This document shows positions 1-60,366 of a stretch of 64,000 nucleotides of DNA, piece by piece; the stretch's first letter is position 1, and every line of letters begins with the position of its first letter. A program made the translations under genes and the position numbers. The DNA comes from Diplonema papillatum (lineage: Eukaryota; Euglenozoa; Diplonemea; Diplonemida; Diplonemidae). Under the pieces are notes generated by a model. The model saw only the letters and a list, made by a program, of their open reading frames with translations, was not told the origin of the DNA and searched no databases. The DNA is taken from positions 1 to 64,000 of the forward strand of contig JAPJBO010000488.1 of assembly GCA_030068145.1 (NCBI GenBank). Reading direction: 5' to 3'.

Positions 1-118
1 CCCACCAGCGGCCCCGCCAGCGGCCACACCAGCGGCCCCGCCAGCGGCCCCGCCAGCGGCCCCGCCAGCGGCCCCGCCAGCGGCCCCGCCAGCGGCCCCG
101 CCGGCGGCCCCGCCAGCG
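1..118 (+). repeat. 12-bp GC-rich tandem repeat coding PAAP
   Basis: About nine tandem copies of a 12-base unit (ccagcggccccg and close variants) fill the left edge. In the frame beginning at base 2 each unit codes Pro-Ala-Ala-Pro, giving a low-complexity linker at the visible start of the zinc-cluster ORF. The array probably extends beyond the window. Confidence 0.85.
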
Positions 119-352
119 GACGCGGCAGCGCAGAAGAAGAGGAAGACGCCGGAGCCGGCAGGGGACGGGCCGGCTCCCGCGGGAAGCGACGCCCGGATGG
201 ACGGTGCAGAGCACGTCCACGCCTTCGGGACCCCCACGAAGGCCGCAGCCGGCTACACCTGCGGCGTGTGTAGGAAGAAGAAGGCGAAGGGTCAGCTTCG
301 CTTGGAATGCGAGGGCTGCGACGTCAGCGCGTGCAAGACTTGCACGAGCTGA
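2..352 (+). CDS. Partial ORF: PAAP repeats, basic patch, C-terminal zinc cluster
   Basis: The frame is open from base 2 to a TGA at 350-352; the start lies outside the window. In order it shows PAAP repeats, a basic QKKRK stretch that could be a nuclear signal, and a C-terminal cysteine cluster with three CxxC pairs (YTCGVC, ECEGC, CKTC). Two readings fit. It could be the end of an ORF1/gag-like protein of retrotransposon copy 1. It could instead be the terminal zinc ribbon of a piggyBac-type transposase, which also ends in paired CxxC motifs. The same frame stays open after the stop for another 1.6 kb into the AlkB-2A-endonuclease region, and the stop sits in a TGA-CTA context, which favours one expression unit. 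Function is not established. Confidence 0.5.
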   Translation, partial: PPAAPPAATPAAPPAAPPAAPPAAPPAAPPAAPPAAPPADAAAQKKRKTPEPAGDGPAPAGSDARMDGAEHVHAFGTPTKAAAGYTCGVCRKKKAKGQLRLECEGCDVSACKTCTS

Positions 353-556
353 CTACCTCCACAGCCCGCACCCGGCGCCAGTGGCCCCGCCAGCCCATTA
401 CGGGTTGCCCTGCGCGCGAGGCCCTCGTTCGGGCTGCCGAGTCCTAGCACCCCTGCTAGGCAGTTCGATCACGCAGAGACGGAAAAAGAGAATTCCTGCT
501 CCTCCTCTTTTCCCCTCCCTCTCTCTCACGGCGCGCCTGGCCTCAATCGCCCGGGA

Positions 557-1981
557 GTGATACCCCGAGGGCCCGGTTTTGCGCACAAACAATCCCCCTA
601 CAATAGCCAGTGTGCCCGGCCAACTTGCAACGAGGGCCCCCCCGCCAGGGTGGAGGGACCCATCCCGGGGCTAAGTTTCCAGGCGATCCCTCGGGATCTT
701 CTGGATAGACTGAGCCGAGCACCCGAGCTCAACCCGGAAGCCCCATGGGGAAGGCTGGGGGGTGGACACAGCAGGGAAACCCAGCAGTGGGGGCACGCCT
801 ATCGACTAGGTGAACCCCCGATCAGACTGGAACGGGGTATCCCCGAGGGGCCCCTGAAAGAAGCGGCGGATCTCATACGTGACCGCCTTGGGTGGGAACC
901 GGACCAGTTGCTGGCCAACTGGTACCGGAGGGGAGTGGGGATCAACCCCCACAAAGACCAGAGAGAACTGGGTCCGAGGGTAGCGACCATATCGCTCTTG
1001 AGCGACACGGTCATGGAATGGGAGAGGGGGAGCCGGAGACTGAGAACCCCTCTGCCGGTCGGCACACTGTGCCACATGGAAGGCGAGGCCAGGAACCTGT
1101 GGACACACGGGATTCGTCCCGATGATGTCGCACGCGACCGGGTCTCGCTGACCTACAGGGCCGTGCGCGAGGCCGCCTCCCAAAGTTTGCAAGGCCGGGA
1201 CACCCCGCAAGAAGCTCCCATACCCCCCCCGCCCAGCCCTCAGGCATCCACTGCACCCCCCCAACATCAGTCCAGCCCCGCGCCACGGACACTTTTGCTT
1301 CATCACCAAAGAACTCTACAATCAATCAAAGAATCAGCAAGACAGCGGCTGATAACCGCGGGGGACGTCGAACAAAACCCTGGTCCCGGCCGCGCGGAGA
1401 TGAGGTTCGCGACGTTAAACGTAACCAACCTACTACAGTATCTCCCAGCGGCCGACGCGGTGGAAGCGGATCTTCTCTGCTGCCAGGAGGTGACACTCCT
1501 TCCGTGCAAACGGGTGCAGGCGGAGGAATACCTGCGGAAATGGTGCTGCCACTGGGGTCTGCCACCACCCGGAAGACTCTGTAGGAACTCCGGTAGTCGC
1601 TCGACGATGAACGCCGCGAACGGAGGGCTCTCCACTCTAGTACTGAGACCGATACCGGCGTACGATACGATGACGGCGCTCTCGCACGCAGCAATACGGT
1701 CCCCGGACCGAGTGAGCCATACGGTAGTAGCAACAGGGGCCGGCAACACGTTCGTGCACGTGTTCAATGTCTACTGCCCTTCCGGAAACGGGAGGGCGGA
1801 GAGCGAGGAGCGTGAGGACATGCTGGAGAAGATCCTCTTCGCAGCGGCGGATAGCCTCGGTGACGTCCCCATAATGGTGATGGGTGACCTGAACAGAAGA
1901 AGACCGGTCCCCTGTACTGCGGAAGGCACTAAGGAATGGATGGTCCGACGCAGCGGAACTGCACCATGCGCGTACCGGTGA
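557..1981 (+). CDS. AlkB-like dioxygenase - 2A - APE endonuclease N-terminal part (copy 1, frameshifted)
   Basis: The frame is open from 353 to 1981 and has no ATG before about 1015; position 557 is only the first GTG. Codons at roughly 650-1170 match AlkB-type 2-oxoglutarate/Fe(II) dioxygenases: an N-x-Y lead-in (LANWYRRG), the iron-binding HxD as HKD (His 950-952, Asp 956-958), the distal His in WTHGI (1106-1108), and the 2-oxoglutarate arginine motif RVSLTYR (Arg 1139-1141 and 1157-1159). A Pro/Ser-rich linker follows, then a 2A peptide (1364-1387) and the start of an APE endonuclease (TLNV, CCQEV, GDLN). AlkB proteins oxidatively demethylate alkylated nucleic acids; RNA or cDNA protection is the obvious guess. 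Relative to copy 2, two bases are missing near 1895, so this frame ends early at 1981 after unrelated residues. Confidence 0.8.
   Translation: MIPRGPGFAHKQSPYNSQCARPTCNEGPPARVEGPIPGLSFQAIPRDLLDRLSRAPELNPEAPWGRLGGGHSRETQQWGHAYRLGEPPIRLERGIPEGPLKEAADLIRDRLGWEPDQLLANWYRRGVGINPHKDQRELGPRVATISLLSDTVMEWERGSRRLRTPLPVGTLCHMEGEARNLWTHGIRPDDVARDRVSLTYRAVREAASQSLQGRDTPQEAPIPPPPSPQASTAPPQHQSSPAPRTLLLHHQRTLQSIKESARQRLITAGDVEQNPGPGRAEMRFATLNVTNLLQYLPAADAVEADLLCCQEVTLLPCKRVQAEEYLRKWCCHWGLPPPGRLCRNSGSRSTMNAANGGLSTLVLRPIPAYDTMTALSHAAIRSPDRVSHTVVATGAGNTFVHVFNVYCPSGNGRAESEEREDMLEKILFAAADSLGDVPIMVMGDLNRRRPVPCTAEGTKEWMVRRSGTAPCAYR
1364..1387 (+). other. 2A ribosome-skipping peptide (DVEQNPGP)
   Basis: The in-frame octapeptide DVEQNPGP fits the class-1 2A signature D-V/I-E-x-N-P-G-P exactly, with a suitable upstream stretch (RQRLITAG). 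Skipping would occur between Gly (1382-1384) and Pro (1385-1387), releasing the AlkB-containing part from the endonuclease-RT. The endonuclease methionine (EMRF) begins only four codons later. 2A peptides are known in trypanosomatid L1Tc and in some animal APE-type LINEs. Confidence 0.9.
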
Positions 1982-2093
1982 CACACCACCACCACCGACC
2001 TTTACCAGCGCCCGGACATCGGGCACGAGGATCGACCGCATACTCCTCAACCGAATAACGACGGGAGCTTTCCGCCAATGCGTCACCACCGCG

Positions 2094-5000
2094 GTGAACG
2101 TGCCGGGACACCGGCTCGTGACAATGACCCTGGACATTGCGGCGCTGCGCCAAATCGTGTGGCGATTTAAAGTACCGCGGGAAATCTCTACGGAGGGGGG
2201 ACCCAAGTGGGGCCTCTCGGACACAGAAGCTTACAGGGAAGCCGTACAGAGACTGGCCAACTCCGATTTCGCAGAACGGCTGGCAGCACAGCGAGTGGAA
2301 GAGGCCTGGCTCGAGTGGTCACGAGTCAGTGAGCAGTACTTGCAGGATGCCTTCGGAATCCCTGCGGAAGAAAGGGGAAGAAGTACCGGCCGGGGGATAA
2401 AGACGTCACCTAAAAGAGTCTGCATCACGGCAAGCACTGCGAGCGACGGGTCGGGGGCGGCGAACAGCAGACAGCTACGGCTCCGGAAGGCCATCCACAG
2501 GATGGAACGCATCTGCAGCTACCTTGCGCAACGGCGCGGGCCGGAGGCAGTTCCGCATGAGGTATCCCGTTGCTGGCAGAACAGCAGGCGGCTGGCACAG
2601 GCGTGCATGAAAGATGGCCAAGGGACAGAAGGATTCCCGGATCATGAGGAGGCGAAGCAGCTTCTCACGGCATTGCGGGAAGAGACGAGCAGGCTCGGAA
2701 AGGAAGGATCGGCGGCCAGGTTTACGAAATACCGAGACAAGCTGAACGAGAGGGCCGATGCGAGCAGACGATGTCTGACAACCATCTGCGCCGGACGCGC
2801 TGAGCCGTCGGGGGTGTTGCGAAAGGGGGCGGGAGTGACTGCAAATGTTGACGAGATGGACGAGGTGCTGAACACTGCGTGGGACCCTATCCTGCGTAAG
2901 TACAAGGACGGGCCAGAGCCGGAGTACGAGCCGTTTCGGGATCGGTTCCGGGATCACATCGGCCCACATATGATGGAAGCCGGAACAATCACGGGGGAGG
3001 AGCTGCGAATTCTGCTGAGGAAGAAGCCGAAGAAAAGCGCGTCAGGGGTGGATGGCTGGCGTATGGCTGAACTGCGGGAGTTGCCGCTCCCCCTGCTGAA
3101 TGCACTTGCAGACGTCATGAACCTGGTCGAAGCAACTGGAGACTGGCCGGCAAGCATGACAACTGCGCTGGTGTCGATGGTGCCGAAGGATGAGAGTCAA
3201 GACCCGCTGCACACAAGACCGATAACCGTCACATCCGCCGTGTACCGCTTATGGGCCTGCCGCAGGCTGGCGGACATAGTTCTGTGGCAAGAGGAATGGA
3301 TCGAAGAAGGACAGAAAGGCTTTCGACCGGGTCACCGGATCGAGGACGTCTTGATGGAAATTGGGCTCGAGATGGAGGACGCCTTGTTAGACGGGGAGCC
3401 GCTCTACGGTGTGGCGCTGGACTTCCGGAAATGCTTCGACATGGTCCCGCGAGAGATAGTACTGCGCTTAGCCGAGGACTTAGGATTGCACAATCGGGTT
3501 CTCAAGCCGCTGAGGGCTATCTACAGACTGCTCGCGAGACGCTTCAAGCTACCATTAGGGGTGGGCAGGGAGTTCAGTGTGACCAACGGTATCCTTCAAG
3601 GGTGCCCTGTATCCGTCATACTCATCAATGCCCTGCTGTCGGTAGTGATGAAAGCGGTCAAGAAAGAAGCGGAGGGTGTGAGTCCAAAGTCATACGCGGA
3701 CGACGCCACACTGCTGTCCAGGCTGTCGGAGGCCGCCCTGCAAAAGGGAGTGGACGTAGTAGACGAGTTCTGCACACTCACCGGGATGGAGCTAAACCTC
3801 CAGAAGACGGTCGCGTTCTCGACGAGACGTAGGCATCAGTCGACTCTCAAACTCCGCAGCGTGGATGCGCTGCTGCGGTTTAGCAAATCCGTCAAGTGCC
3901 TCGGGGTCCTAGTCTCGACGGCGAAGAATAGGACGGAAAGGTCCGACTCGGAGAGGGTGGAGAAGGCGGCTGCCCTGGCGGAAGGCCTCCGCCATGCGCC
4001 GTTCCGGTACGAAAAGCGGGTCCGGATTGTGCAGTCGAATGTGCTACCGGCGGCGCTGTCAGGCTGCTCTTTCGCGCCGGTATCGAAGGTGGCGATGAAA
4101 CGGCTGACGACGTCGGTGATGGGACTGATCTGGGGTGGATCCAACCCGAAGCGCGCGAGGGAGATGGTCCTAAACTTTCAGGAGAAGGGCCACCTGACGG
4201 ATCCCGGTACATGCCTAGCATATAGGGTGACGACAGCGTTTTACGCGGCGTGCGAGAGGTTGCCACGACTGCTGCCTCTGATGGAGAGCATCCGGGGAAG
4301 ATACGCCGAGGGGGACCTACCCCTGGGGCCAGTTGGACTGGCGATGAGGAGCATGGAGGAGTGTGGACACGTATGGGGACCCGGGCCCCTGTCTCGCACG
4401 CTGAGGAATGGTGCAACATATGACCCGTTAGCCTCGGCACCTTCGAAGAGGGGACATGAAGTTAGGGCGGACTTGAGGGCGAAGACGTGGTCCCGACTGG
4501 TGGCGAGGCGGCCGGGATTTGAGGGCATACAGAGAGCCGACCTGGAGCGGACGAACACCTTCTGGAGGATGCGTGAATGTCCCGCGCACACCGCGAGGCT
4601 TATACGTGTAGCGTTGGCGGGGGGGGTGAACACGGCTGAGTACACGTCGCGGATGAGGCAGGCCGGAGCTGAGCCGCAGGCGCCCAGCTGCAAGCACTGT
4701 GGAAGCGGCGACACCGAGGACGAGAAACACGTATTCTGGGACTGCGGAGCGTACTCGCACATACGGCGACGAGAGGCACATGCCGAGCTGATGGCAGCCA
4801 ACCGGGCCGACTGGCCCAGATGCACGCTGGAACACGGTGTGGTAGTACCCGAGAATGCCCAATTCTCGAGGCGGCTCCAGGAGATGATGGCTGAAATCCT
4901 TGCGGAACGGGCTGGGCTCGAAGCACGTGGCTGGGTGGCCAGGAACCCCACGACCCCCTGGTCGAGAGCGAATGCGATGCCTGCCGAGAAATTTGACCAC

Positions 5001-6383
5001 CCCTTCGCGCGGATTGCCCCGGCATGGACGTGGGAGCGGAACAAGACCTGGGGACTACCGACGTTTTATGCGTTGGTAGCGTGGCTGTCGGACATGCAAT
5101 GGACCGAGAACGGGCAGGCGTCAATGCTGGAGCTTGCGATCGACTTTGAACTCTTCTCGGGCCTCAGCATGCCGCTGCACGGGAATGCGCCGAAGGGGGT
5201 GAGAGAACGGGGAAACGTCCTGCGCTGCATGATGAGCGCGTTGGACAAGCTGGCGGCACAGCAAGGGCTGGGAAGCTGCATGAGAGGAGAGAGGGTGTGC
5301 CCGACGACGTCGCTGTCGTTCATGGGCATCACGGGGATATCGGGTATACGGCCCAGGCCACGCTTTCGCGAGGCACACACGGGGACGATACTTGAGGAAC
5401 AAGTGAAAGGAAGCGATGTAGGGACGCAGTGCCCGACGTACCCTGACTGGACGATCGGGAGAGCGGCGAGGTGGGCCCTGCCTGCCCCACCACAACTGCA
5501 CCCAGACCCCGTGCATATGCCGGGTGTCGGTATAGAGAAGGCACTCGTCACGTGCGCGACCCATCACAAAGGGAAGTGTGAGGCGTGCAGAGCACTCGTC
5601 CGAAGGGACGTTCCCACGGTAGAGATGTGCTGCCGGCACCATCACCACGCGAACGATGGGCAGCCGATCGCGGTGTGCACAGAGCACAGCACGACGAAGT
5701 GCGGCGAGTGCAAGACGGCGGCGGCGTGTTGCCGCAGCGGGCATCATGCCTGCCGCACGCATGGCAGAGGAACCTGCCAAGAGTGCAAAAGGCTCCCTAC
5801 GCTGACGCAGAGGCGACCGGCGGCATGTTGCAGCCGCGGCCACCACCAGTCCAACAAGCCGAACGTCCAGTCAACCCCCGGACGCAACAAGAAGAAGAGG
5901 CCCTCCTCACCCACCCAGGTGGGTGTACAGCGGGAGACGCCATTAGGAAAGCGAGCGGCGCGAGCGGCGCGAGCGGCGCGAGCGCCGCTCGCGGCAACGA
6001 AAAAGGAGACGGCGGCAACCGGACGGGCGACCAAGAGGCCGCCACCAACGCCAGGAACCAGCGAACGACCAGCGCTGAAGAAGAGGGTGCTTGGCACCCC
6101 GAAGGAAGGCCCGATCGCCGGCCGCAAGCGGAAGAAGACGAAGGCAACCACCCCCGACTCAGGGGTGCATCGAAGGAAGAAGAAGGTTCCGAGGGCAAGC
6201 AGCTCTCAGAAACGACCGGGGACCACGGGCACGCCAATGCCCTCGAAAGTGAAAAACGGGCACACGTGCCCGCCCTCGTACTCGCCGACTCAGTCTCTGG
6301 AATCGCAAGAAAGCCAAACCCCGCTAGCTCCACAAATGCTTAACCTTGACGACGCAATGGCAGGTGACGACGTCATCCGATAA
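2094..6383 (+). CDS. Reverse transcriptase part of retrotransposon copy 1 (downstream of frameshift)
   Basis: This frame is open from just after the 2-base deletion (about 1896); 2094 is only its first in-frame ATG. It codes the end of the APE domain (GTRIDRILLN, PGHRLV), then a LINE reverse transcriptase: motif A ALDFRKCFDM, motif B NGILQGCPVS and the catalytic YADD box at 3693-3704. Further on come a C-x2-C-x9-H-x4-C knuckle (4689-4745), typical of the C-terminus of APE-class LINEs, and a threefold Cys/His array (5553-5849). A Lys/Arg/Pro-rich tail with several KKR patches ends the protein. No RNase H domain is seen. It is close to copy 2 throughout. Because the start is separated from the endonuclease N-terminus, it is a broken gene, although the RT itself keeps its catalytic residues. 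Confidence 0.85.
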   Translation: MNVPGHRLVTMTLDIAALRQIVWRFKVPREISTEGGPKWGLSDTEAYREAVQRLANSDFAERLAAQRVEEAWLEWSRVSEQYLQDAFGIPAEERGRSTGRGIKTSPKRVCITASTASDGSGAANSRQLRLRKAIHRMERICSYLAQRRGPEAVPHEVSRCWQNSRRLAQACMKDGQGTEGFPDHEEAKQLLTALREETSRLGKEGSAARFTKYRDKLNERADASRRCLTTICAGRAEPSGVLRKGAGVTANVDEMDEVLNTAWDPILRKYKDGPEPEYEPFRDRFRDHIGPHMMEAGTITGEELRILLRKKPKKSASGVDGWRMAELRELPLPLLNALADVMNLVEATGDWPASMTTALVSMVPKDESQDPLHTRPITVTSAVYRLWACRRLADIVLWQEEWIEEGQKGFRPGHRIEDVLMEIGLEMEDALLDGEPLYGVALDFRKCFDMVPREIVLRLAEDLGLHNRVLKPLRAIYRLLARRFKLPLGVGREFSVTNGILQGCPVSVILINALLSVVMKAVKKEAEGVSPKSYADDATLLSRLSEAALQKGVDVVDEFCTLTGMELNLQKTVAFSTRRRHQSTLKLRSVDALLRFSKSVKCLGVLVSTAKNRTERSDSERVEKAAALAEGLRHAPFRYEKRVRIVQSNVLPAALSGCSFAPVSKVAMKRLTTSVMGLIWGGSNPKRAREMVLNFQEKGHLTDPGTCLAYRVTTAFYAACERLPRLLPLMESIRGRYAEGDLPLGPVGLAMRSMEECGHVWGPGPLSRTLRNGATYDPLASAPSKRGHEVRADLRAKTWSRLVARRPGFEGIQRADLERTNTFWRMRECPAHTARLIRVALAGGVNTAEYTSRMRQAGAEPQAPSCKHCGSGDTEDEKHVFWDCGAYSHIRRREAHAELMAANRADWPRCTLEHGVVVPENAQFSRRLQEMMAEILAERAGLEARGWVARNPTTPWSRANAMPAEKFDHPFARIAPAWTWERNKTWGLPTFYALVAWLSDMQWTENGQASMLELAIDFELFSGLSMPLHGNAPKGVRERGNVLRCMMSALDKLAAQQGLGSCMRGERVCPTTSLSFMGITGISGIRPRPRFREAHTGTILEEQVKGSDVGTQCPTYPDWTIGRAARWALPAPPQLHPDPVHMPGVGIEKALVTCATHHKGKCEACRALVRRDVPTVEMCCRHHHHANDGQPIAVCTEHSTTKCGECKTAAACCRSGHHACRTHGRGTCQECKRLPTLTQRRPAACCSRGHHQSNKPNVQSTPGRNKKKRPSSPTQVGVQRETPLGKRAARAARAARAPLAATKKETAATGRATKRPPPTPGTSERPALKKRVLGTPKEGPIAGRKRKKTKATTPDSGVHRRKKKVPRASSSQKRPGTTGTPMPSKVKNGHTCPPSYSPTQSLESQESQTPLAPQMLNLDDAMAGDDVIR

Positions 6384-6453
6384 CCTGACTTTCAAGGCAG
6401 TGCATGCTAATCCATGTGGTTCATGTACTTAAAAGAACTCAATGCTTAACGGC
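6384..6453 (+). other. 3' UTR and terminal hairpin of retrotransposon copy 1
   Basis: From cagtgcatgc onward this tail is identical to that of copy 2. It contains a 7-bp stem (gtgcatg 6400-6406 with catgtac 6422-6428, one G-U pair). It ends in aactcaatgcttaacggc without poly(A). A structured, tail-less 3' end suggests the RT recognises the RNA by structure. Confidence 0.7.
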
Positions 6454-9400
6454 TGCACGGAGATGAAGTTCGCGACGCTCAACGTGACCAGCATGCTGCA
6501 GTACATAGTAGCGGTTAACGCGGTGGAAGCCGACCTTCTTTGCTGCCAGGAGGTCACACTCCTTCGATGCAAACGGGCACAGGCGGAGGAATACCTACGG
6601 AATTGGTGCTGCCACTGGGGTCCGCCACCTCCCGGGAGACTCTGTAGAAGCTCCGGTAGTCGCTCGACGACGAACGCTGCGAACGGGGGACTCTGCACTC
6701 TAGTACAGAGGCCGATACCGGCGTACGACACGTTGGCAGCGCTCTCGCACGTGGCGTTACGGTCCCCGGACCGGGTAAGCCATACTGTAGTCGCAACAGG
6801 GACCGGCAGCACCTTCGTGCACGTGTTCAATGTCTACTGCCCATCAGGAAACGGGAGGGCGGAGAACGAGGAACGTGAGGACATGCTGGAGAAGGTCCTC
6901 TTTGCGGCGGCAGACAGCCTCGGCGACGTCCCCATACTGGTGATGGGAGACCTCAACACGGAAGAAGATCGGTCCCCTGTTCTGCGGAAGGCACTTAGGA
7001 ACGGATGGTCCGACGCAGCGGAACTGCACCATGCGCGCACCGGGAACACGCCTCCGCCACCGACCTTTACCAGCGCCCGGACGTCAGGCACGAGGATCGA
7101 CCGCATACTCCTCAACCGCATAGCGGCGTGTGCATTCCGTCAATGCGTCACCACCGCGGTGAACGTACCGGGACACCGGCTCGTGACAGTGACCCTGGAT
7201 ATTGCAGCGCTGCGCCAAAGCGTGTGGCGATTTAAGGTGCCGCGGGAAATCCCGACAGAGGGGGGGTCCAAGTGGGACCTCTCGGAAGCAGAAGCCGACA
7301 GGGAAGCCGTACAGAGACTGGCCAACTCCGAATTCGCGGAACGATTGGCGGCGCAGCGGGTGGAAGAGGCCTGGCTCGAGTGGTCACGGGTCAGTGAGCG
7401 GTACTTGCAGGATGCATTCGCCGTCCCTGTGGAAGAGAGAGGAAGGGGTACCGGCCGGGGGATGAAGACATTGCCGAGGAGGGTCTGTGTCACGGCGGGC
7501 ACTGCGACCGACGGGTCGGGGGCAGCGAACAGCAGGCAGCTACGGCTTAGAAAGGCCATCCACCGGATGGAACGCATCTGCAGCTACCTCGCGCAACGTC
7601 GCGGGCCGGAAGCTGTTCCACATGAGGTGTCCCTCTGCTGGCAGAACTGCAAGCGGCTGGCACAAGCGTGCATGGTGGGCGACCAAGGCGCAGGGGGGTT
7701 TCCGGATCATGAGAAGGCGAAGCAGCTGCTCACAGCGTTGCGGGAAGAGACGAGTAGGCTCGGAAGGGAAGGATCTGCGGCCAGGTTTACGAAGTACCGA
7801 GACAAGCTGAACGAGAGGGCGGACGCGAGCAGACGATGTCTAGCGACCGTCTGCGCCGGTCGCGCTGAGCCGTCGGGAATGTTGCGCACCGGAGCGAAGA
7901 TGACTGCAAATGTGGACGAGATGGACGAGGTGTTGCACACTGCGTGGGACGCTATCCTGCGTAAGTACAAGGACCGGCCAGAGCCGGAGTACGGTCCGTT
8001 TCGGGATCGGTTCCAGGAGCACATCGACACACACTTGATGGAACCCGGAACGATCACGGGGGAGGAGCTGCGGACTCTGCTAAGGAAGAAGCCGAAGAGA
8101 AGCGCGTCAGGCGTGGATGGCTGGCGCATGGCTGAACTGCGGGAGTTGCCGCTTCCCCTGCTGAATGCGCTAGCGGATGTCATGAACCTGGTCGAAGTGA
8201 CTGGGGTTTGGCCGGCGAGCATGACAACTGCCCTGGTGTCGATGGTGCCGAAGGATGAGAGCCAAGACCCGCTGCACACGAGGCCAATAACCGTCACGTC
8301 CGCTGTGTACCGCCTATGGGCGTGCCGCAGGCTTGCGGACATAGTCCTGTGGCAGGAGAAGTGGATCGAAGAAGGACAGAAGGGCTTTCGACCGGGTCAC
8401 CGTATCGAGGACGTCCTGATGGAGATAGGGCTCGAGATGGAGGACGCCTTGCTAGATGGAGAGCCGCTCTACGGGGTGGCGCTGGACTTCCGGAAATGTT
8501 TCGACATGGTCCCGCGAGAGATAGTGCTGCGCCTGGCCGGTGACTTAGGGTTGCACAATCGGGTTCTCAAGCCGCTGAGGGCGATCTACAGACTGCTCGC
8601 GAGACGCTTCAAGCTGCCTCTAGGGGTGGGCAGGGAGTTTAGTGTGACCAATGGTATCCTTCAAGGGTGCCCTGTGTCCGTCATCCTCATCAATGCCCTG
8701 CTGTCGGTAGTGATGAAGGCGGTCAAGAAAGAAGCGGAGGGGGTGAGCCCAAAGTCGTACGCAGACGATGCCACGCTGCTATCCAGGCTGTCGGAGGCCG
8801 CCCTGCAAAAGGGGGTGGACGTAGTAGACGAGTTCTGCACGCTCACCGGAATGGAGCTAAACCTCCAGAAAACGGTCGCCTTCTCGACGAGACGTAGGCA
8901 TCAGTCGACGCTCAGACTCCGCAGCGTGGATGCGCTGCTGCGGTTTGGCAAATCTGTCACGTGCCTGGGGGTCCTAGTCTCGACGGCGAAGAATAGGACA
9001 GAAAGGTCCGACTCGGAGAGGGTGGAGAAGGCGGCTGCCCTGGCGGAAGGCCTCCGCCATGCGCCGTTCCGGTACGAGAAGCGGGTCCGAATTGTACAGT
9101 CGAATGTGCTACCGGCGGCGCTGTCAGGCTGCTCTTTCGCGCCGGTGTCGAAGGTGGCAATGAAACGGCTGACGACGTCGGTGATGGGACTGATCTGGGG
9201 TGGGTCCAACCCAAAGCGCTCGAGGGAGATGGTCCTAAATTTTCAGGAGAAGGGCCACCTGACGGACCCCAGTACATGCCTAGCATATAGGGTGACGACG
9301 GCGTTCTACGCGGCGTGCGAGAGGTTGCCACGACTTCTGCCTCTGATGGAGAGCATCCGGGGAAGGTACGCCGAGGGGGACCTACCCCTGGGGCCAGTTG

Positions 9401-11436
9401 GGCTGGCGATGAGGAGCATGGAGGAGTGTGGACACGTATGGGGACCAGGGCCCCTGTCTCGCACGCTGAGGAATGGTACAATGTTTGACCCGATAGCCTC
9501 GACACCCTCGAAGAGGGGGCATGAGGTGAGGGCGGATTTGAGGGCGAAGACGTGGTCCCGTCTAGTAGCGAGGCGGCCGGGATTCGAGGGTGTGCAGAGG
9601 GCTGACCTGGAGCGGACGAACTCCTTCTGGAAGATGCGTGAATGTCCCGCGCACACCGCGAGGCTTATACGTGTAGCGTTGGCGGGAGGAGTGAACACGG
9701 CTGAGTTCACGTCGCGGATGAGGCAGGCCGGAGCTGAGCCGCAGGCGCCCAGCTGCAAGCACTGTGGAAGCGGCGATACCGAGGACGAGAAACACGTATT
9801 TTGGGACTGCGGAGCGTACTCGCACATACGGCGACGAGAGGCACATGCCGGGCTGATGGCGGCCAACCGCGCCGACTGGCCCAGATGCACGCTGGAACAC
9901 GGAGTGGTAGTACCCGAGAATGCCCACTTCTCAAGGCGGCTCCAGGAGATGATGGCTGAAATCCTAGCGGAACGGGCAGGGCTCGAAGCACGAGGCTGGG
10001 TAGCCAGGAACCCCACGACCCCCTGGTCGAGAGCGGATGCGATGCCTGCCAAGAAGCTCGACCACCCCTTTGCGCGGATTGCCCCGGCATGGGCGTGGGA
10101 GCGGAACAAGGCCTGGGGACTACCGACGTTTTATGCGTTGGTGGCGTGGCTATCAGACATGGAGTGGACCGAGAACGGGCAGGCGTCAATGCTAGAGCTT
10201 GCCATCGACTTTGAACTCTTTTCAGGCCTCAGCATACCGCTGCACGAGAATACACCGAAGGGGGTGAGGGAGCGAGGAAACGTCCTGCGCTGCATGATCA
10301 GCGCGTTGGACAAGCTGGCGACACAGCAAGGGCTGGGGAGTTGCGAGAGAGGCGAGAGAGTATGCCCGACGACGTCGCTGTCGTTCATGGGCATCACGGG
10401 GATATCGGGGGTGCGGCCCAGGCCCCGCTTTCGCGAGGCACACACGGGGACGATCCTCGAAGAGCAGGTGAAGGGAAGCGATATAGGGACGCAGTGCCCG
10501 ACGTACCCGGACTGGACGGCCGAGAGAGCGGCGAGGTGGGCCCTGCCTGTCCCACCACAGCTGCACCCCGACCCCGTGCATATGCCGGGTGTCGGAGTAG
10601 AGAAAGCACTCGTCACCTGCGCGACCCACCACAAGGGGAAGTGTGAGGCGTGCCGAGCACTCGTCCGAAGGGACGTACCCACGGTAGAGATGTGCTGTCG
10701 GCACCATCACCACGCTGACGATGGGCAGCCGATCGCCGTGTGCGTGGAGCACAGCACGACGAAGTGCGGCGAGTGCAAGACGGCGGCGGCGTGCTGCCGC
10801 AGCGGGCATCATGCCTGCCGCACGCATGGCAGAGGAACCTGCCAAGAATGCAGGAGGCTCCCTACGTTGACGCAGAGGAGACCGGCAGCGTGCTGCCGCC
10901 GCGGCCACCACCAACCAAACGAACCTAACGCCCCGGCAACCCCCGGACACAGCAAAAAGAAGAGACCCCTCTCACCCACCCAGGGGGGCGTACAACGTGA
11001 AACGCCGGCGGGAAAGCGCGCGGCGCAGGCGCCGCCCGCCGTAGCGAAGCAGAAGACGGCGACGACCGGACGGGCAGCCAAGAGGCCGCCACCAACGCCA
11101 GGCACCGGCGAACGACCAGCGTTGAAAAAGAGGGTGCTCGGCACCCCGAAGGAGAGCCCGATCGCCGGCCGCAAGCGGAAGAAGGCGAAGGCGACCACAC
11201 CCGAGTCAGGGGTGCAACGAAGGAAGAGGATGGCCCTTAAAGCAAACAGCTACCAGAAACGTTCGACGTCCCCAAGCACTCCAGTGCCCTCGAGAGTGAA
11301 AAACGTGCAAGATTGTCCGCACCTGTGCCCCTCCACGCAATCTCCAGAACCGCAAGAAAGCCCAGCGCCCCTGGCGCCACAAGTACTCGACCTTGACGAC
11401 GCAATGACAGGTGACGACGTCATAAAGTATCCTTAA
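6442..11436 (+). CDS. APE endonuclease - reverse transcriptase polyprotein (copy 2, intact ORF)
   Basis: One uninterrupted frame of 1664 codons. The first residues (MLNGC) come from the 3' tail of copy 1; the native APE start is the Met of EMKF at about 6463. Domains: APE endonuclease, about residues 8-250 (TLNV, CCQEV, NVYCPSG, GDLNTEED, GTRIDRILLN, PGHRLV); a linker of about 250 residues; reverse transcriptase (ALDFRKCFDM, NGILQGCPVS, YADD at 8758-8769); a C-x2-C-x9-H-x4-C knuckle; a threefold Cys/His array (10618-10914); and a Lys/Arg-rich tail. The enzyme would nick target DNA and prime cDNA synthesis from element RNA. All catalytic motifs I can check are present, so it may be active, but the copy has lost its natural 5' region and any promoter there. 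Confidence 0.9.
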   Translation: MLNGCTEMKFATLNVTSMLQYIVAVNAVEADLLCCQEVTLLRCKRAQAEEYLRNWCCHWGPPPPGRLCRSSGSRSTTNAANGGLCTLVQRPIPAYDTLAALSHVALRSPDRVSHTVVATGTGSTFVHVFNVYCPSGNGRAENEEREDMLEKVLFAAADSLGDVPILVMGDLNTEEDRSPVLRKALRNGWSDAAELHHARTGNTPPPPTFTSARTSGTRIDRILLNRIAACAFRQCVTTAVNVPGHRLVTVTLDIAALRQSVWRFKVPREIPTEGGSKWDLSEAEADREAVQRLANSEFAERLAAQRVEEAWLEWSRVSERYLQDAFAVPVEERGRGTGRGMKTLPRRVCVTAGTATDGSGAANSRQLRLRKAIHRMERICSYLAQRRGPEAVPHEVSLCWQNCKRLAQACMVGDQGAGGFPDHEKAKQLLTALREETSRLGREGSAARFTKYRDKLNERADASRRCLATVCAGRAEPSGMLRTGAKMTANVDEMDEVLHTAWDAILRKYKDRPEPEYGPFRDRFQEHIDTHLMEPGTITGEELRTLLRKKPKRSASGVDGWRMAELRELPLPLLNALADVMNLVEVTGVWPASMTTALVSMVPKDESQDPLHTRPITVTSAVYRLWACRRLADIVLWQEKWIEEGQKGFRPGHRIEDVLMEIGLEMEDALLDGEPLYGVALDFRKCFDMVPREIVLRLAGDLGLHNRVLKPLRAIYRLLARRFKLPLGVGREFSVTNGILQGCPVSVILINALLSVVMKAVKKEAEGVSPKSYADDATLLSRLSEAALQKGVDVVDEFCTLTGMELNLQKTVAFSTRRRHQSTLRLRSVDALLRFGKSVTCLGVLVSTAKNRTERSDSERVEKAAALAEGLRHAPFRYEKRVRIVQSNVLPAALSGCSFAPVSKVAMKRLTTSVMGLIWGGSNPKRSREMVLNFQEKGHLTDPSTCLAYRVTTAFYAACERLPRLLPLMESIRGRYAEGDLPLGPVGLAMRSMEECGHVWGPGPLSRTLRNGTMFDPIASTPSKRGHEVRADLRAKTWSRLVARRPGFEGVQRADLERTNSFWKMRECPAHTARLIRVALAGGVNTAEFTSRMRQAGAEPQAPSCKHCGSGDTEDEKHVFWDCGAYSHIRRREAHAGLMAANRADWPRCTLEHGVVVPENAHFSRRLQEMMAEILAERAGLEARGWVARNPTTPWSRADAMPAKKLDHPFARIAPAWAWERNKAWGLPTFYALVAWLSDMEWTENGQASMLELAIDFELFSGLSIPLHENTPKGVRERGNVLRCMISALDKLATQQGLGSCERGERVCPTTSLSFMGITGISGVRPRPRFREAHTGTILEEQVKGSDIGTQCPTYPDWTAERAARWALPVPPQLHPDPVHMPGVGVEKALVTCATHHKGKCEACRALVRRDVPTVEMCCRHHHHADDGQPIAVCVEHSTTKCGECKTAAACCRSGHHACRTHGRGTCQECRRLPTLTQRRPAACCRRGHHQPNEPNAPATPGHSKKKRPLSPTQGGVQRETPAGKRAAQAPPAVAKQKTATTGRAAKRPPPTPGTGERPALKKRVLGTPKESPIAGRKRKKAKATTPESGVQRRKRMALKANSYQKRSTSPSTPVPSRVKNVQDCPHLCPSTQSPEPQESPAPLAPQVLDLDDAMTGDDVIKYP

Positions 11437-11501
11437 GCGGCGACACAGTGCATGCTAATCCATGTGGTTCATGTACTTAAAAGAACTCAATGCTTAACGG
11501 C
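6451..11501 (+). mobile_element. Non-LTR retrotransposon copy 2, 5'-truncated, inserted directly behind copy 1
   Basis: Copy 2 begins within a base or two of the last base of copy 1, at a shared ggc, and aligns with copy 1 from about 1388 onward. It therefore lacks the AlkB domain and the 2A peptide but keeps everything downstream. It ends at 11501 in the same aatgcttaacggc tail. The two copies are highly similar, so the tandem is fairly young. No target-site duplication can be read, because its left side is copy 1 itself. Confidence 0.85.
11437..11501 (+). other. 3' UTR and terminal hairpin of retrotransposon copy 2
   Basis: Same tail as copy 1, with a stem formed by gtgcatg (11448-11454) and catgtac (11470-11476) and a final aatgcttaacggc. 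The bases after 11501 (ttatcacgtg) are unrelated flanking DNA, which defines the 3' end. Confidence 0.7.
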
Positions 11502-12714
11502 TTATCACGTGGGCGGCCCTGAGATTACCCCCTCAGGGGACACCACTTTATCTTTAGCCATACTACAACTCTCTTCTTCATGGAGACCCGCCCCCGGCAT
11601 CCCGACTGTCCAATCACTGTCGAGAAAGTTTGCGCCTATTGTGATGAGGTGGTTGACCAGGCCCCCACGAAGCCTTACACACAACACGGCTACAACACGA
11701 GGATGCAGTCCTGCTTAGGTGTGCACTCAGCCATCAGGCCATTGGCTGCTAAGCACCCCCCGACCGGTCGATTGCCACTTTTGCGGCTCTATTCGCCGGG
11801 CGGTGCTGTCAGCACTTGTTTCGCGTCGCATCAAGTACATGATGCTGGCGGTTGGGGGATCGGCGACCGCGACTCAATTAAGGTGCGGTCAACAGCGTCG
11901 CCACGTGAAGGCCCCCCCATGACACCATCTCTCCCACGAAGAAGAAAAGAAAAAGAAAAAATAAAAAGGCCGCTCCTGGTCCAGGAACGTGACAGTCAAC
12001 CGCAGCTTGCAAAGCTTGAGTCGGAGGCAGCACAGTGCCACAACCCCGTCCGCTCTGCCCTGCGGCTGACCGTCTTGACGAGCTTGTGTTCAGCGCGAGC
12101 GCCAAGCTCCAAGGTGCGCCACGCCTTGATGCTTTAGTTTGGGAAATCGGTAGCCACTTGACCCGTAGGCCCGTGGCTCTGCAGTACCGCCGAACACGTG
12201 AAGCTTGGCTCCCGTGTAGCAGGCTTTCCCTGGTACCTCGGGTCACCGACGAAGAAAAGAACAGTAAAGCAAGACCTGCTCCCTGCGCCTGCTGTCTCCG
12301 GCGGCTTCGGCAGACGACACATACTACTACTAGTTTGAACCCGCATAACAAGTTCAAACTACTACTACTGGTGCCCCCGGCGCACATCAAAATCAAAGCA
12401 CCAGAGGTAAAATAATCCCGATTCAACCGACATGTGTCCGGCTCGTCGGAATAGGGGTAAGCTCGAGAATTCAATTCGAACAGGCCGATACACCACCACC
12501 TACGCATACCCGCACGCCCCCTTCCAAACAGACTTGAGATATCAAAAAGCGAGGCCAGTGACACCTCAGTTACACAACACGCTCCTTGATAGATCCGAGC
12601 GCAAAGGAACAGGACATTGCTGAGAGCGCAAACAGAAAGGAAGAAAGAAAAGAAAGGGAAGCGCTCGCCCGTTATTTATTTGTGCCGACTCTCAGCTCCT
12701 CCCCTCCATCACCA
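11502..12714. other. Gene-free stretch between retrotransposon and SPX gene
   Basis: No convincing coding region. A segment at about 12095-12275 resembles 15222-15390 (shared pieces include gtgcgcc, cgccttga and gaagaaaagaac), so it is a dispersed repeat. Purine-rich aaagaaaagaaaggg lies at about 12640-12660 just before the SPX start. A core promoter cannot be recognised. Confidence 0.4.
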
Positions 12715-24777: not shown

Positions 24778-27003
24778 ATCCACCTGGTCCGGGCTCCTGG
24801 TAAGCTCCCCGAAACTCCCCGCAACTCCCCGAAACTCCCCGATACTCAGCCCGATTTTTGTGGGAAAAGTGGGGCTGCCTGTGGGTGGGCAAATGTACAG
24901 GTTGGTAGTTGAGTGGACAGATGGGTGGATGGCGGTGGGCAGGTCGGTGGATGGGTGAACAGGTGGGTAGTTGGGTAGACGGGTGCGGGGAAGTGGGTGA
25001 GGTGTGCAGGTAGGTGTGCTCGTGTGCTTCGGACGCGGCTCTCTTGAGCCGTCCGTGTTCCTCTTCCTCCGATCCTCTTCCTCTACTAACCGGATGCATC
25101 TACCAACTGTAGCTTGGACTCCTGGGCAGTTGTTGAGGCACACCCTTCAGCCTGCGGATTCGGAGGGCCTCAAGGCGAACCAGCAGTTGCTGGAAAACCT
25201 GCAGGACCTGCCTTTGAGTCCTTGGACACAGGGAGGCGTCTGAACAGGACGCGTCGTGTGCATGAGCGCAGGTTCAACCATCATCTGGTCTTCTGTTTGC
25301 GGTTGCAACCTTCGGTACCACGAGTTTGCCATTCTTATGTCAAACTCTCCAATCCCCTCTTGGGTTTTGGTTTGGGCAAAAAGTATTCGCGCCCGCCATC
25401 TCCCGATGACCTTCCCACTTCTGACCACGCTGCAGCAGTCACGTGTAAACCGGGCAGACCCAGTCGTCCCCCATCTGGTCCCGAACGACGAGCACCGCTC
25501 CTGCACCCGAGTTTAGCCTTCGATGATTGGAAGCCGCATCGGAAACAGTGGGTCAACCCATCCCGGAATTCTGAATTCGTGCACCCGGTTGAAAGGAGTG
25601 TCCACTTCGGAGTCCACGTTCACTTATGTGGGGAGTTGTAGAGTACGGGAGGAACCGGAAATCTCCGGAAAGATGGTACCCGCATTCCAACTCGTCTCGG
25701 GAATGGTCAGTCGACGACCGTATGCAGGTGGGTGGAGGCCCTGGGACTGCGAAGGTGTGACCACCCCATAAGGAGGACTCTCTATCTTGCGTTATCTCTC
25801 TGTCCCAGTCGCCATAGCAACCGTATCCTTGGCCAAGCATCATCCTGCAACCCTGCTTTCGGATGGCCATCGTGCCTCTCATTTTGGTTATCAACCTTAC
25901 TCCTCGCTCGAATTGCCGTCTTCGACCGTAGCTGCCCCTGGTCCTGGTGGTTAGGGTTAGCATGCAAAGAGCCTGTGGCGATAATCTGCATCTGCTCTCT
26001 TTCGTGACTACCTCTTCGTGCTACCTCTCTTCGTCACTGGTACCTTATCTTGACCTCTGCCCGCCGCGGAGTGCACGTCTCTGTCTTCGATGATGGCGAG
26101 TCCTTACGCCGCCGCTTCGTTGCAGCGGCCGTCCTAGTGTCGTCGCCTTGTCTTCGGCGTTCTCGATGGCGGTGTTGGCGCCGGCATCCGCCGCTTCCCT
26201 TGTGGCGCTTTGGGCCGATGGTCGCAGCCTGCGTCTCGACTTCGGTGTCGCTTCGGGCGTCCCCAGGGGCGAAGGCCCGCGCTTCCGTCTCTTTGCCGCC
26301 GACTCCGCACATCGGCATATCGTGCTGCAGGCAGGCATCCGCGGTGTGAGTTCCTGCAGCATTCCGCGATCGTCTTGCACGTCCCGCACTGCGTCATCCT
26401 GTGCTTCTCGCAATACTTCACGGCGAGGCCGTCCGGATGTCTCGTGCACACTCTCTCGTCCTTGGTGGTGGCCTGGGCACGCCTACCTCCATGCACTGGG
26501 TCTCCGCCGCCCACTAAATTTACCCTCTTCTGCCCCTTCTTGCCGGAGGTGCCGTCTTCGAAGGCGTCCCACCAGCACGTCCGCCCATACGTGGAAAATA
26601 CGTCCATCCCCCAGACCTCATCATTGAAGGCGTGCCTGTTCGTCCCCAGCTGCGACTCGAGCACGAGCATTGTCTCTGTACCCGCACGACCTCTGGTGGA
26701 ACAGTTCCTGCTCTCCTTGCCGCAGCGGTTCCTGTCGCTACCTGTGTCAAACCGTGCCAACCTGTACCTCCCAGTCTGTCCTTCCTTCGCAGCCCCTATC
26801 TTCGTCTTCGGGGCATAGCCAAACACGGGACCGCTCTGCGCAAGGTAGGGCCATAATAGCGTAGCCCCCTCCCCGCCTTCGCCAAGGCCGGCTGCAGGGA
26901 AAGTGGTCGCCACAAAGGAAATACCCCGAAACTCCCCGAATTTCCCCGAAGCTCCCCGAAACTCCCCGATACTCCCCGATATTTTCGTCTGGACCAGGTG
27001 GAT
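24778..27003. mobile_element. 2.2-kb composite bounded by inverted 13-mers
   Basis: atccacctggtcc at 24778-24790 is inverted as ggaccaggtggat at 26991-27003. Just inside each end lies an array of actccccga units (24803-24848 and 26923-26985), but both arrays run in the same direction. The interior holds a g/t-rich ggtgggtgg tract (24870-25010), unexplained sequence and a minus-strand Cys/His ORF relic. It could be one decayed element or nested insertions; I cannot assign a class. Confidence 0.45.
26050..26770 (-). pseudogene. Mobile-element ORF relic with Cys/His domain (minus strand)
   Basis: On the minus strand a long open frame contains FNDEVWGMDVFSTYG, CWWDAFEDG, a basic linker and then, at about 26330-26445, CTRHPDGLAVKYCEKH, QCGTCKTIAECC and RNSHRGC. 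The last part has the same spacing as the retrotransposon array (CTEHSTTKCGECKTAAACC). The protein continues into a basic, Arg/Lys/Pro-rich tail as the retrotransposon does. Upstream residues do not match the retrotransposon; FNDEVWGMDVF faintly recalls the F/Y-N-x2-x-G-x-D of piggyBac transposases, which is weak. The minus-strand 3' side carries an ATGCAG hairpin motif (25958-25995), suggesting a 3' UTR. Confidence 0.5.
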
Positions 27004-28399
27004 AATATATATTTGTATATTTTTATATATCTTTACGCTAAAAAGATTTCGTAAACAAATAAACGCTAAAAAGATTTCGTTGTAGGACAGTGGTAGGGCT
27101 GAGGACATCCGCTTCGGGTGTGACTCAGGCACACCCTCTTTAACTCCAGCTTCTGAGTCTGGACCTCACCGTGTACTGGTGAAAAAAGAAGAGTGGCACC
27201 TCAGAGTACTTTTTCTTTTTACCAAACGTGAATGTCGGAGGAAATGAGAAGCTCGCCACTGCAAACCGTGGCGTTTTTCACTTGCGTCCTGAATCTAGCT
27301 CAACGATCAGGCACGGCGTTCAACTGAAAGGATTTGCCATTTTTTGCCTCCATTTTCCTCGCGAGAGAACCCATCCACCTCGGGAAGCCCCGTATCATTC
27401 ATTACCTGTGCTCTACAAACAGTGATATTCGTGCCTTGCGTGCAACCTGTGTTAGAGACAGAAGTCAGCTTGTGAGTTTGATCAAAGCAGCGTCAAGGCA
27501 GACCAGCCACAGTCAACACCGCGTGGGTGCGGGCTTCAGATATTAATTTCAAACCCCCGATTGACGTTACCTGAACGCACCCGGAGGGTGTCGGTGGTAC
27601 GAAGGTGCAGTTGCCCGCATCCAACCGGCAATCAGCTCACCTCGGGGAGGTGACGCTACACACCTGGACGAGGTGTCCTGCTGTCCCTGTTAGCGACAAC
27701 ATTTCTGAGTCAATTCAATGTTTCTCACACACCAGCGAGCCAAAGCAGGCGTTCACTGCTGAATCCGGTTCGTCAGGCAGTTCATGGCTGTTGAAGCCAC
27801 GCTCGTGCGAGCAGCTGAAAGCGTACACCATACCGATGCGGGTCACGCGTGTTCTGAAGCAGGTGTTCGCCATGAACGTTTCGGAGTGAACATCAGGGGA
27901 TCGCCGTCTTCAGCAAACATCGTGAAGTAGTTCACGACTTTCTTCATCATTAGATACGTGCAAACACCCCTCTGTGCCTGAGCGTAGCGGGCCACGAACA
28001 ACCATGGGGCGTACCAATCTCATCGAAACAGATTCCGTGCTGATGATGATCCGCCTGTTGTGCCCAGGATGAAAGGGCCTGAACACTGTGCAGATAGGAC
28101 CCGTTGTGCACTGTTCGAAGCACAACCTCGTATACCCACGGCCCACCCCGGTCTTGAACAACTGCCAGTCGAGGTTACCGGCCGTTTGACCAAGCAGCTT
28201 TTGACTGATTTTCTGAGCGGCCACGTCGAGAAAATTGCTCAAATGAGTCTTTTTGAGTGGCAGCAGGACATGCGCGGAAAGAAACCGACTGTGCTCATTC
28301 AACCAGGCATGCTTCACGTGCTGCACACGTCAGCAGACCGCTGAAAGAAAAAAAGGAACATCTGGCCACAAAGCGCACTTTGAACAACTCTTCCCCCCA
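27004..28399. other. Gene-free stretch
   Basis: A/T-rich start with a short direct repeat (cgctaaaaagatttcgt at about 27038 and 27064). A weak family A fragment lies at about 28030-28110. No exon recognised. Confidence 0.4.

Positions 28400-59616: not shown

Positions 59617-60366
<750 letters not shown>

What the first reader, a model, noticed from the sequence alone, without database searches (positions are those of the whole stretch)
557..6383. LINE retrotransposon that joins an AlkB-type dioxygenase, a 2A peptide, APE endonuclease and RT
Seen: AlkB ligands (HKD, distal His, RxSLTxR), an exact DVEQNPGP, APE motifs and a YADD reverse transcriptase in this order. Known: AlkB demethylates alkylated bases in DNA or RNA, and plant RNA viruses such as flexiviruses carry AlkB domains. 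Inference: the element may repair its own RNA or cDNA, or erase host methyl marks, using an enzyme released by 2A skipping. I do not recall a described LINE with this order, but novelty is unverified.
Basis: partly seen in the sequence, partly recalled or inferred. Interest (0 to 1): 0.88.

Follow-up and report, generated by a model that had tools for sequence, protein, structure and literature searches.

The report
AlkB demethylase shared by diplonemid transposons
In a marine protist, abundant jumping genes carry a conserved AlkB-type enzyme domain of the kind that strips methyl groups from DNA or RNA, placed behind a leaky-looking stop codon and in front of a 2A peptide, and close relatives of the domain sit in unrelated transposons of the same genome, which suggests a tool that mobile elements trade.

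Summary
The window lies in what I take to be the Diplonema papillatum genome. Copy 1 encodes, in order, an AlkB domain (662-1171), a 2A motif (1364-1387), APE endonuclease and reverse transcriptase. AlkB is no chance neighbour: 146 AlkB-part matches were scored (of 446 candidates), 145 without internal stop; AlkB dN/dS is about 0.2; catalytic residues are kept; the AlphaFold model (pLDDT 91) matches ALKBH6/2/8/5.

Corrections: the element begins upstream with ORF1. ORF2 follows ORF1 in the same frame after one UGA, followed by CUN in all 7 families read (two share one junction). Three of four AlkB families have no ATG before AlkB. So AlkB is probably a readthrough extension of ORF1p, and 2A frees APE-RT, not AlkB. 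Sister families have UGA-CUN and 2A without AlkB. The window copy is frameshifted in APE.

Beyond the finding: related AlkB domains sit in an OTU-bearing LINE of another type and in Helitrons of the same genome, as one clade (99/95). My (capped) literature listings showed no AlkB in a LINE or Helitron; nearest is orchid Ty3/gypsy. Substrate and expression are untested.

The parts
2..352 (+). 3' end of ORF1 (gag-like; 12-nt Pro/Ala repeat at 1-130, Cys-rich end), stop TGA 350-352; cut by the contig start
   Evidence: frame read; repeat; same in L031
350..355 (+). UGA-CUA junction: ORF1 stop, ORF2 open in the same frame from 353
353..661 (+). linker between stop and AlkB, open, without ATG
662..1171 (+). 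AlkB (2OG-Fe(II) dioxygenase) domain
   Evidence: dN/dS
1364..1387 (+). 2A motif DVEQNPGP
   Evidence: aligned in four families
1391..2135 (+). APE endonuclease region, frame broken near 1900 in this copy
   Evidence: intact in L031
3207..3908 (+). reverse transcriptase (RVT_1), YADD
5556..5855 (+). Cys/His-rich C-terminal region
   Evidence: read by eye; no Pfam match
6381..6450 (+). ORF2 stop TAA and 3' tail ending CAATGCTTAAC
6454..11436 (+). second copy, 5'-truncated just after the 2A, no AlkB; open frame 1664 aa; C-type by eye

Best explanation
A two-ORF, APE-type LINE of Diplonema papillatum whose polyprotein has gained an AlkB dioxygenase between a leaky UGA stop and a 2A peptide. Shown from sequence: order, conservation, selection, catalytic residues, predicted fold, and one in-frame UGA-CUN between ORF1 and ORF2. 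Inferred: most ribosomes stop at the UGA and make ORF1p (gag-like, probably RNA-binding); a few read through and make ORF1p-AlkB-2A; the 2A then frees APE-RT, so AlkB and APE-RT are made one to one and AlkB stays tethered to the ORF1p/RNA particle. Inferred, less sure: AlkB oxidatively removes methyl groups from the element's own nucleic acid (RNA, cDNA or target-site DNA), more likely to lift host methyl marks that silence or flag transposons than only to repair damage, because the same AlkB clade is also kept by Helitrons, which have no RNA intermediate.
For: AlkB fold and residues; 146 scored matches of 446 candidates; AlkB dN/dS 0.18-0.26 between families other than the near-identical A-A' pair; ORF1-TGA-CTN-ORF2 in one frame in A, A', B, C, X60, X65 and X49, and a TGA and no other stop inside 26 of 27 match rows of X49; no ATG before AlkB in A, A', B; UGA CUA is a published high-readthrough context in human cells (PMC4359377, passages); AlkB of the same clade in an OTU-bearing LINE and in Helitrons.
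Against: No expression, readthrough, skipping or enzyme data. Family C has an ATG before AlkB, and the OTU-LINE and the Helitron have one just before AlkB (by eye), so AlkB may be started on its own there. The linker before AlkB is only weakly constrained (dN/dS 0.53-1.03). Some NCBI gene models (P0033, P0050) bridge ORF1 and ORF2 without the stop, so splicing is not excluded. A-A' AlkB dN/dS is 1.17 (0.25-3.5), uninformative. The window copy itself is frameshifted. The ORF1 model is weak: pLDDT 72, pTM 0.42; its top Foldseek hit is an adenylyl cyclase, an RRM protein (Prp24) comes second.
Confidence: 0.6

Rival explanations
1. Splicing or a separate start, not readthrough: a cis- or trans-splicing event removes the UGA or makes a separate AlkB-2A-APE-RT mRNA started at a non-AUG codon (or at the ATG in family C).
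For: Diplonemids trans-splice a leader and have introns (PMC10161547, passages); gene models P0033 and P0050 bridge the stop; the linker of A holds a pyrimidine-rich stretch near 505-530; family C has an ATG.
Against: One in-frame UGA, always before CUN, is kept in 7 of 7 families read and inside 26 of 27 X49 match rows, with no TAA or TAG in those rows; splicing would not need frame, UGA or CUN. Full-length B starts with the spliced leader before ORF1, and no leader was seen before ORF2.
Confidence: 0.2
2. Housekeeping repair: AlkB repairs alkylation damage (1meA/3meC type) on the element's RNA or single-stranded DNA, as proposed for plant RNA viruses, without a host silencing mark being involved.
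For: Fold near ABH2, ALKBH3 and other repair enzymes; viral AlkBs are thought to repair RNA (PMC9289625, passage); both elements have single-stranded stages (recalled).
Against: AlkB-less sister families are abundant too (34 X60 and 26 X49 copies scored), so repair is not essential to a LINE here; the fold does not tell the substrate.
Confidence: 0.3
3. AlkB acts on a host molecule (tRNA, mRNA or chromatin) to make the cell permissive.
For: Best sequence match in PDB is ALKBH8, a tRNA enzyme; NCBI names P0002 a tRNA methyltransferase.
Against: No RRM or methyltransferase domain as in ALKBH8 was found; tethering to ORF1p would keep it on the element's RNA.
Confidence: 0.1
4. Chance: a host AlkB fragment next to a LINE, or an assembly artefact.
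For: Copy 1 is at a contig start and is frameshifted; copy 2 lacks AlkB.
Against: 146 scored matches in several families with open frames; selection; host-type AlkBs are at most 34% identical to the LINE AlkBs.
Confidence: 0.01

Closest known systems
AlkB-bearing Ty3/gypsy elements of Phalaenopsis orchids (PMC9289625; passages read)
   Same: A retrotransposon lineage that fixed an AlkB domain; activity on m6A RNA was shown there in vitro
   Different: LTR element, separate additional ORF, no UGA-CUN or 2A layout described in the passages seen; plant host; single class
AlkB domains of plant RNA viruses (flexiviruses, closteroviruses; PMC9289625 passage)
   Same: AlkB inside a replication polyprotein of a selfish RNA
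   Different: RNA viruses; no reverse transcription. Fold similar at 14-28% identity
2A-bearing LINEs of trypanosomes and sea urchins (recalled; 2A-like LINE signal paper PMC4981915 seen in the listing only)
   Same: 2A next to APE-RT in a LINE; euglenozoan hosts for the trypanosome ones
   Different: No AlkB and no ORF1-UGA-CUN layout that I recall
TRAS LINEs with a viral helicase (PMC5563155, abstract start in listing)
   Same: LINE ORF2 that gained an accessory enzyme domain and kept it
   Different: Helicase in insects, not AlkB
Candida Tca2, gag-UGA-pol (PMC2194720, abstract start in listing)
   Same: Retroelement ORFs split by one in-frame UGA
   Different: LTR element, no AlkB or 2A mentioned there
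TET/JBP genes carried with fungal KDZ transposons (recalled, no call)
   Same: A base-modifying 2OG dioxygenase moving with transposons
   Different: TET/JBP, not AlkB; DNA transposons of fungi

Membership tests
AlkB-type 2OG-Fe(II) dioxygenase | profile match and fold | tested here: met
   PF13532 over cut-off; model pLDDT 91 and Foldseek AlkB hits
AlkB-type 2OG-Fe(II) dioxygenase | HxD...H iron ligands and the two Arg | tested here: met
   invariant in 28 rows
AlkB-type 2OG-Fe(II) dioxygenase | oxidative dealkylation activity | not testable with these tools
   needs an assay
APE-type non-LTR retrotransposon (LINE) | APE plus RT in one ORF, no LTR integrase | tested here: met
   PF03372 and PF00078 in copy 2, no integrase match; LTRs were not specifically sought
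APE-type non-LTR retrotransposon (LINE) | dispersed copies, 5' truncation | tested here: met
   many loci; truncated copy 2; target-site duplications not established
2A / StopGo | D(V/I)ExNPGP | tested here: met
   four families
2A / StopGo | ribosome skipping | not testable with these tools
   needs translation assay
Programmed stop-codon readthrough | in-frame single stop in a leaky context, kept across families | tested here: met
   TGA-CTN in 7 of 7 families read, two sharing one junction
Programmed stop-codon readthrough | protein-level selection just after the stop | tested here: inconclusive
   frame open for 89-145 codons, dN/dS 0.53-1.03
L1Tc/ingi clade of LINEs | RT phylogeny | not tested
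   no RT tree was built; named near RTs are D. papillatum, others unnamed environmental or transcriptome proteins

The most novel reading that the evidence does not exclude
An AlkB eraser is a shared counter-defence module of the diplonemid mobilome: one AlkB clade has passed among an APE-LINE, an OTU-bearing LINE of another type and Helitrons, where it lifts a host methyl mark from transposon nucleic acid; in the LINE its dose is set by double recoding, UGA readthrough followed by 2A.
Probability: 0.4. Interest if true: 0.88.

Novelty: new variant of a known kind. Interest (0 to 1): 0.76.

Why it matters
If AlkB in these elements erases a silencing mark, unrelated transposons in one genome share or trade an epigenetic counter-defence, which would point to a methyl-based defence in diplonemids and give a natural test system for it. 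It also warns annotators: the genome paper reads 'a dozen' AlkB homologs as host regulation (PMC10161547, passages), while a large share of the AlkB matches scored in the assembly coincide with mobile elements, and the non-ATG layout hides AlkB from gene models (P0005 and P0007 begin after it). ORF1-UGA-CUN-linker-2A-APE-RT, with or without AlkB, would be an unusual pairing of readthrough and StopGo in a LINE.

Tried and rejected
Chance neighbour or artefact: rejected by copy number and selection. UGA read as sense: ORF2 of L031 has 35 Trp codons and no internal stop in 2007 codons, so not supported. Viral origin: a scan of viral contigs with A1 (two peptide patterns) gave no relative; fold matches to giant-virus and RNA-virus AlkBs exist at 14-28% identity in the rows shown. 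Rfam: nothing at gathering threshold in the window; no tRNA. NCBIfam: nothing for the window ORF. A U2 snRNA search for organism identity did not complete and was dropped; identity rests on DIPPA_ protein names, genome size and the spliced leader. A genome-wide count of spliced-leader 5' ends did not complete. Not done: full ORF1s of each family, target-site specificity, an RT tree, Helitron AlkB as a database query. Literature searches for AlkB in LINEs, Helitrons or diplonemid transposons: 25 of 406 papers listed; 1 of 1; 10 of 10; 15 of 17; 15 of 935; 15 of 305; 12 of 47; no listed title or abstract start reported it beyond the orchid gypsy paper; the lists are capped, and subscription papers and preprints are not in that library.
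Full report
1. Where it lies. The window is the start of contig C488 of a 271-Mb eukaryotic assembly of 2910 contigs. The nearest protein relatives are named Diplonema papillatum DIPPA_ genes, and one element 5' end carries a euglenozoan spliced leader: 38 of 39 nt of the sequence listed as 'Euglenozoa 14' in PMC3795323 (one passage read; that text does not name Diplonema; that this is Diplonema's leader is recalled). I take the organism to be D. papillatum (assembly about 280 Mb in PMC10161547; passages read).

2. The observation. AlkB, 2A, APE and RT are present in the stated order. PF13532 E 2.4e-12, RVT_1 E 1.1e-20. The APE of copy 1 scores below its Pfam cut-off because the frame breaks near position 1900; copy 2 shows it clearly (E 1e-10). 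The AlkB part alone matches ALKBH8 (E 1.2e-6) and S. pombe P8A3.02c, the Ofd2 entries 5yl6/5ylb (about 1e-5), in PDB sequences. An AlphaFold2 model of 611-1189 with a 28-row alignment has pLDDT 91 and pTM 0.85; Foldseek finds ALKBH6 (E 2e-12, TM 0.71), then ABH2, ABH8, Ofd2 and ALKBH5 between 8e-11 and 5e-10. HxD, distal His and both Arg are invariant in that alignment.

3. Not a chance insertion. In the genome 146 AlkB-part matches were scored of 446 candidates, 145 of 146 without internal stop, in three identity groups (94-100%, 85-86% and 77%), many in open frames of 1,990-2,046 aa. I call the representatives read A (L031), A' (L034), B (L032) and C (L033). By Nei-Gojobori counting, AlkB dN/dS is 0.22 (A-B, 95% bootstrap 0.11-0.45), 0.18 (A-C, 0.10-0.29) and 0.18 (B-C, 0.10-0.30); A-A' is too close to judge (1.17, 0.25-3.5). 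For the five pairs other than A-A', APE is 0.09-0.17, RT 0.05-0.07, the AlkB-2A linker 0.36-0.66 and the linker before AlkB 0.53-1.03. So AlkB is kept by selection, nearly as strictly as APE.

4. The element is longer, and looks recoded. Upstream of AlkB lies ORF1: 480, 618, 650 and 460 open codons in L031, L034, L032 and L033 (L031 looks 5'-truncated), with a Cys-rich end. The ORF1 model is of middling confidence (pLDDT 72, pTM 0.42); its Foldseek hits are weak, first an adenylyl cyclase, then the RRMs of Prp24 and other tandem-RRM proteins. ORF1 ends in UGA and ORF2 continues in the same frame: TGA CTA (A), CTC (A'), CTG (B), CTG (C). Of 30 A-type loci (the window's own included) 29 keep TGA CTA and L003 differs; these are near-identical copies, not independent witnesses. 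In A, A' and B no Met codon stands between the UGA and AlkB; in C one does. UGA CUA is a published high-readthrough context in human cells (PMC4359377, passages); PMC4207609 and the gag-UGA-pol element Tca2 (PMC2194720) were seen only in the search listing.

5. Sister families without AlkB. X60 (P0012; RT 60% identical): 5 of 6 loci read show ORF1-TGA-CTA-linker-GGDIEENPGP-APE and no AlkB; in the sixth (L058) the sequence before the APE differs. X65 (L064, one locus; 65% identical to P0012): ORF1-TGA-CTC-linker-GGDVETNPGP-APE, no AlkB. X49 (P0033; RT 49%): 26 candidates scored gave 27 match rows; 26 rows have a TGA inside (25 one, 1 two) and none a TAA or TAG; the row without is the downstream part of the copy on C13. 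Only one X49 junction was read: TGA CTG, then two 2A motifs. So UGA-CUN stands in 7 of 7 families read, 6 junctions if A' and X65 count once. UGA-CUN plus 2A thus appears older than AlkB, and AlkB came into the linker between them. A' is a recombinant: its ORF1 equals that of X65 over the aligned stretch (100%), 175 of its first 180 nt from the UGA match X65, and from +198 it is A-type with AlkB. Among the 85 RT-related proteins, 10 show a strict 2A-like motif, 4 carry a precomputed OTU domain and none PF13532; gene models often begin at an ATG after the 2A, as those of the AlkB family itself do (P0005, P0007), so this absence is weak.

6. AlkB in other transposons of the same genome. A PF13532 search scored 150 of 250 candidates; the best 20 became loci, the other rows were not read one by one. 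They led to: L056, an ORF of at least 2256 aa with AlkB, a weak OTU match (E 7.5e-4, below cut-off) and an RT that aligns to the first LINE's RT at only 22% over 200 aa, while the AlkB part is 69% identical over 210 aa; its C-terminal part looks like a restriction-like-endonuclease LINE by eye, not tested. L055, an open frame of 2965 aa with AlkB, Helitron_like_N, PIF1 helicase and UCH. L052-L054, a second Helitron-like family, and G (L049-L051, L057), a decayed Helitron-like element with AlkB and an OTU-like part, both judged by eye. Helitron AlkBs are under selection too (E-F dN/dS 0.25, 0.14-0.37). For a tree, 44 rows were aligned (13 of the 20 loci, six other loci, 25 database AlkBs) and 3 short database rows dropped; the ten transposon AlkBs, some of them near copies, form one clade, support 99/95, apart from nine host-type Diplonema AlkBs and 22 database AlkBs; the metagenome protein P0089 is next (82/81). 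Limits: 'host-type' is my label for loci without visible transposon domains; the database rows were found with a query of five LINE-borne AlkBs; named ALKBH families were not in the tree. Host-type AlkBs are at most 34% identical to the LINE AlkBs, Helitron ones 41-45%.

7. How it probably works. ORF1p is the main product; readthrough adds AlkB; 2A frees APE-RT. AlkB therefore probably rides on ORF1p in the ribonucleoprotein, one for each APE-RT. In the OTU-LINE and the Helitron an ATG stands just before AlkB (by eye), so the readthrough layout belongs to the APE-LINE, not to AlkB as such. That Helitrons keep the same AlkB clade argues that the useful substrate is shared by RNA- and DNA-borne elements: their mRNA or their DNA. 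5mC and base J pathways are annotated in D. papillatum (PMC10161547, passages), but AlkB action on either is not known to me; I rate mark erasure above pure repair, both unproven.

8. Novelty. No listed title or abstract start in my searches (most lists capped) reports AlkB in a LINE or Helitron; the orchid gypsy AlkB (PMC9289625, passages) is the nearest. Relatives of the AlkB part among proteins of LINE length were only three D. papillatum gene models (2379 candidates); standalone AlkBs found with the domain alignment are at most 42% identical, over about half the domain (25 hits among 7993 candidates). The parts are known kinds; the combination, the recoding layout and the sharing across transposon classes are new as far as I could see.

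Noticed in passing
window 6381-6454 and 11436-11560; L031-L034: Copies lie head to tail: the 5' flank of each of four copies read ends in the same tail (..CATGTACTTAAAAGAACTCAATGCTYAAC) as the element's own 3' end, and a common stretch GGCTTATCACGTGGGC..TTTAGCCATACT follows the tail in four of the five 3' ends with outside flank read (not in L032); perhaps site-specific insertion.
   Followed up: partly
L032 780-817; L034 760-772: Element 5' ends begin with 38 nt or 13 nt of the spliced leader straight after the tail of the preceding copy: retrotransposition of a trans-spliced mRNA.
   Followed up: partly
L065 (X49 family): Two 2A motifs in a row between the UGA-CUG and the APE.
   Followed up: no
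P0002, P0001, P0003: Transposon AlkB is misread in gene models: P0002 is named a tRNA methyltransferase; P0001 and P0003 look like fusions with unrelated sequence.
   Followed up: no
window 26134-27132 (-): An ORF whose Cys/His-rich part resembles by eye the C-terminal tail of another LINE family (P0027); probably a LINE remnant.
   Followed up: no
window 43642-44103 and 45273-45765; 60135-60364: Two arrays of one 32-bp unit about 1.2 kb apart (a duplicated stretch) and a 115-copy TG repeat.
   Followed up: no
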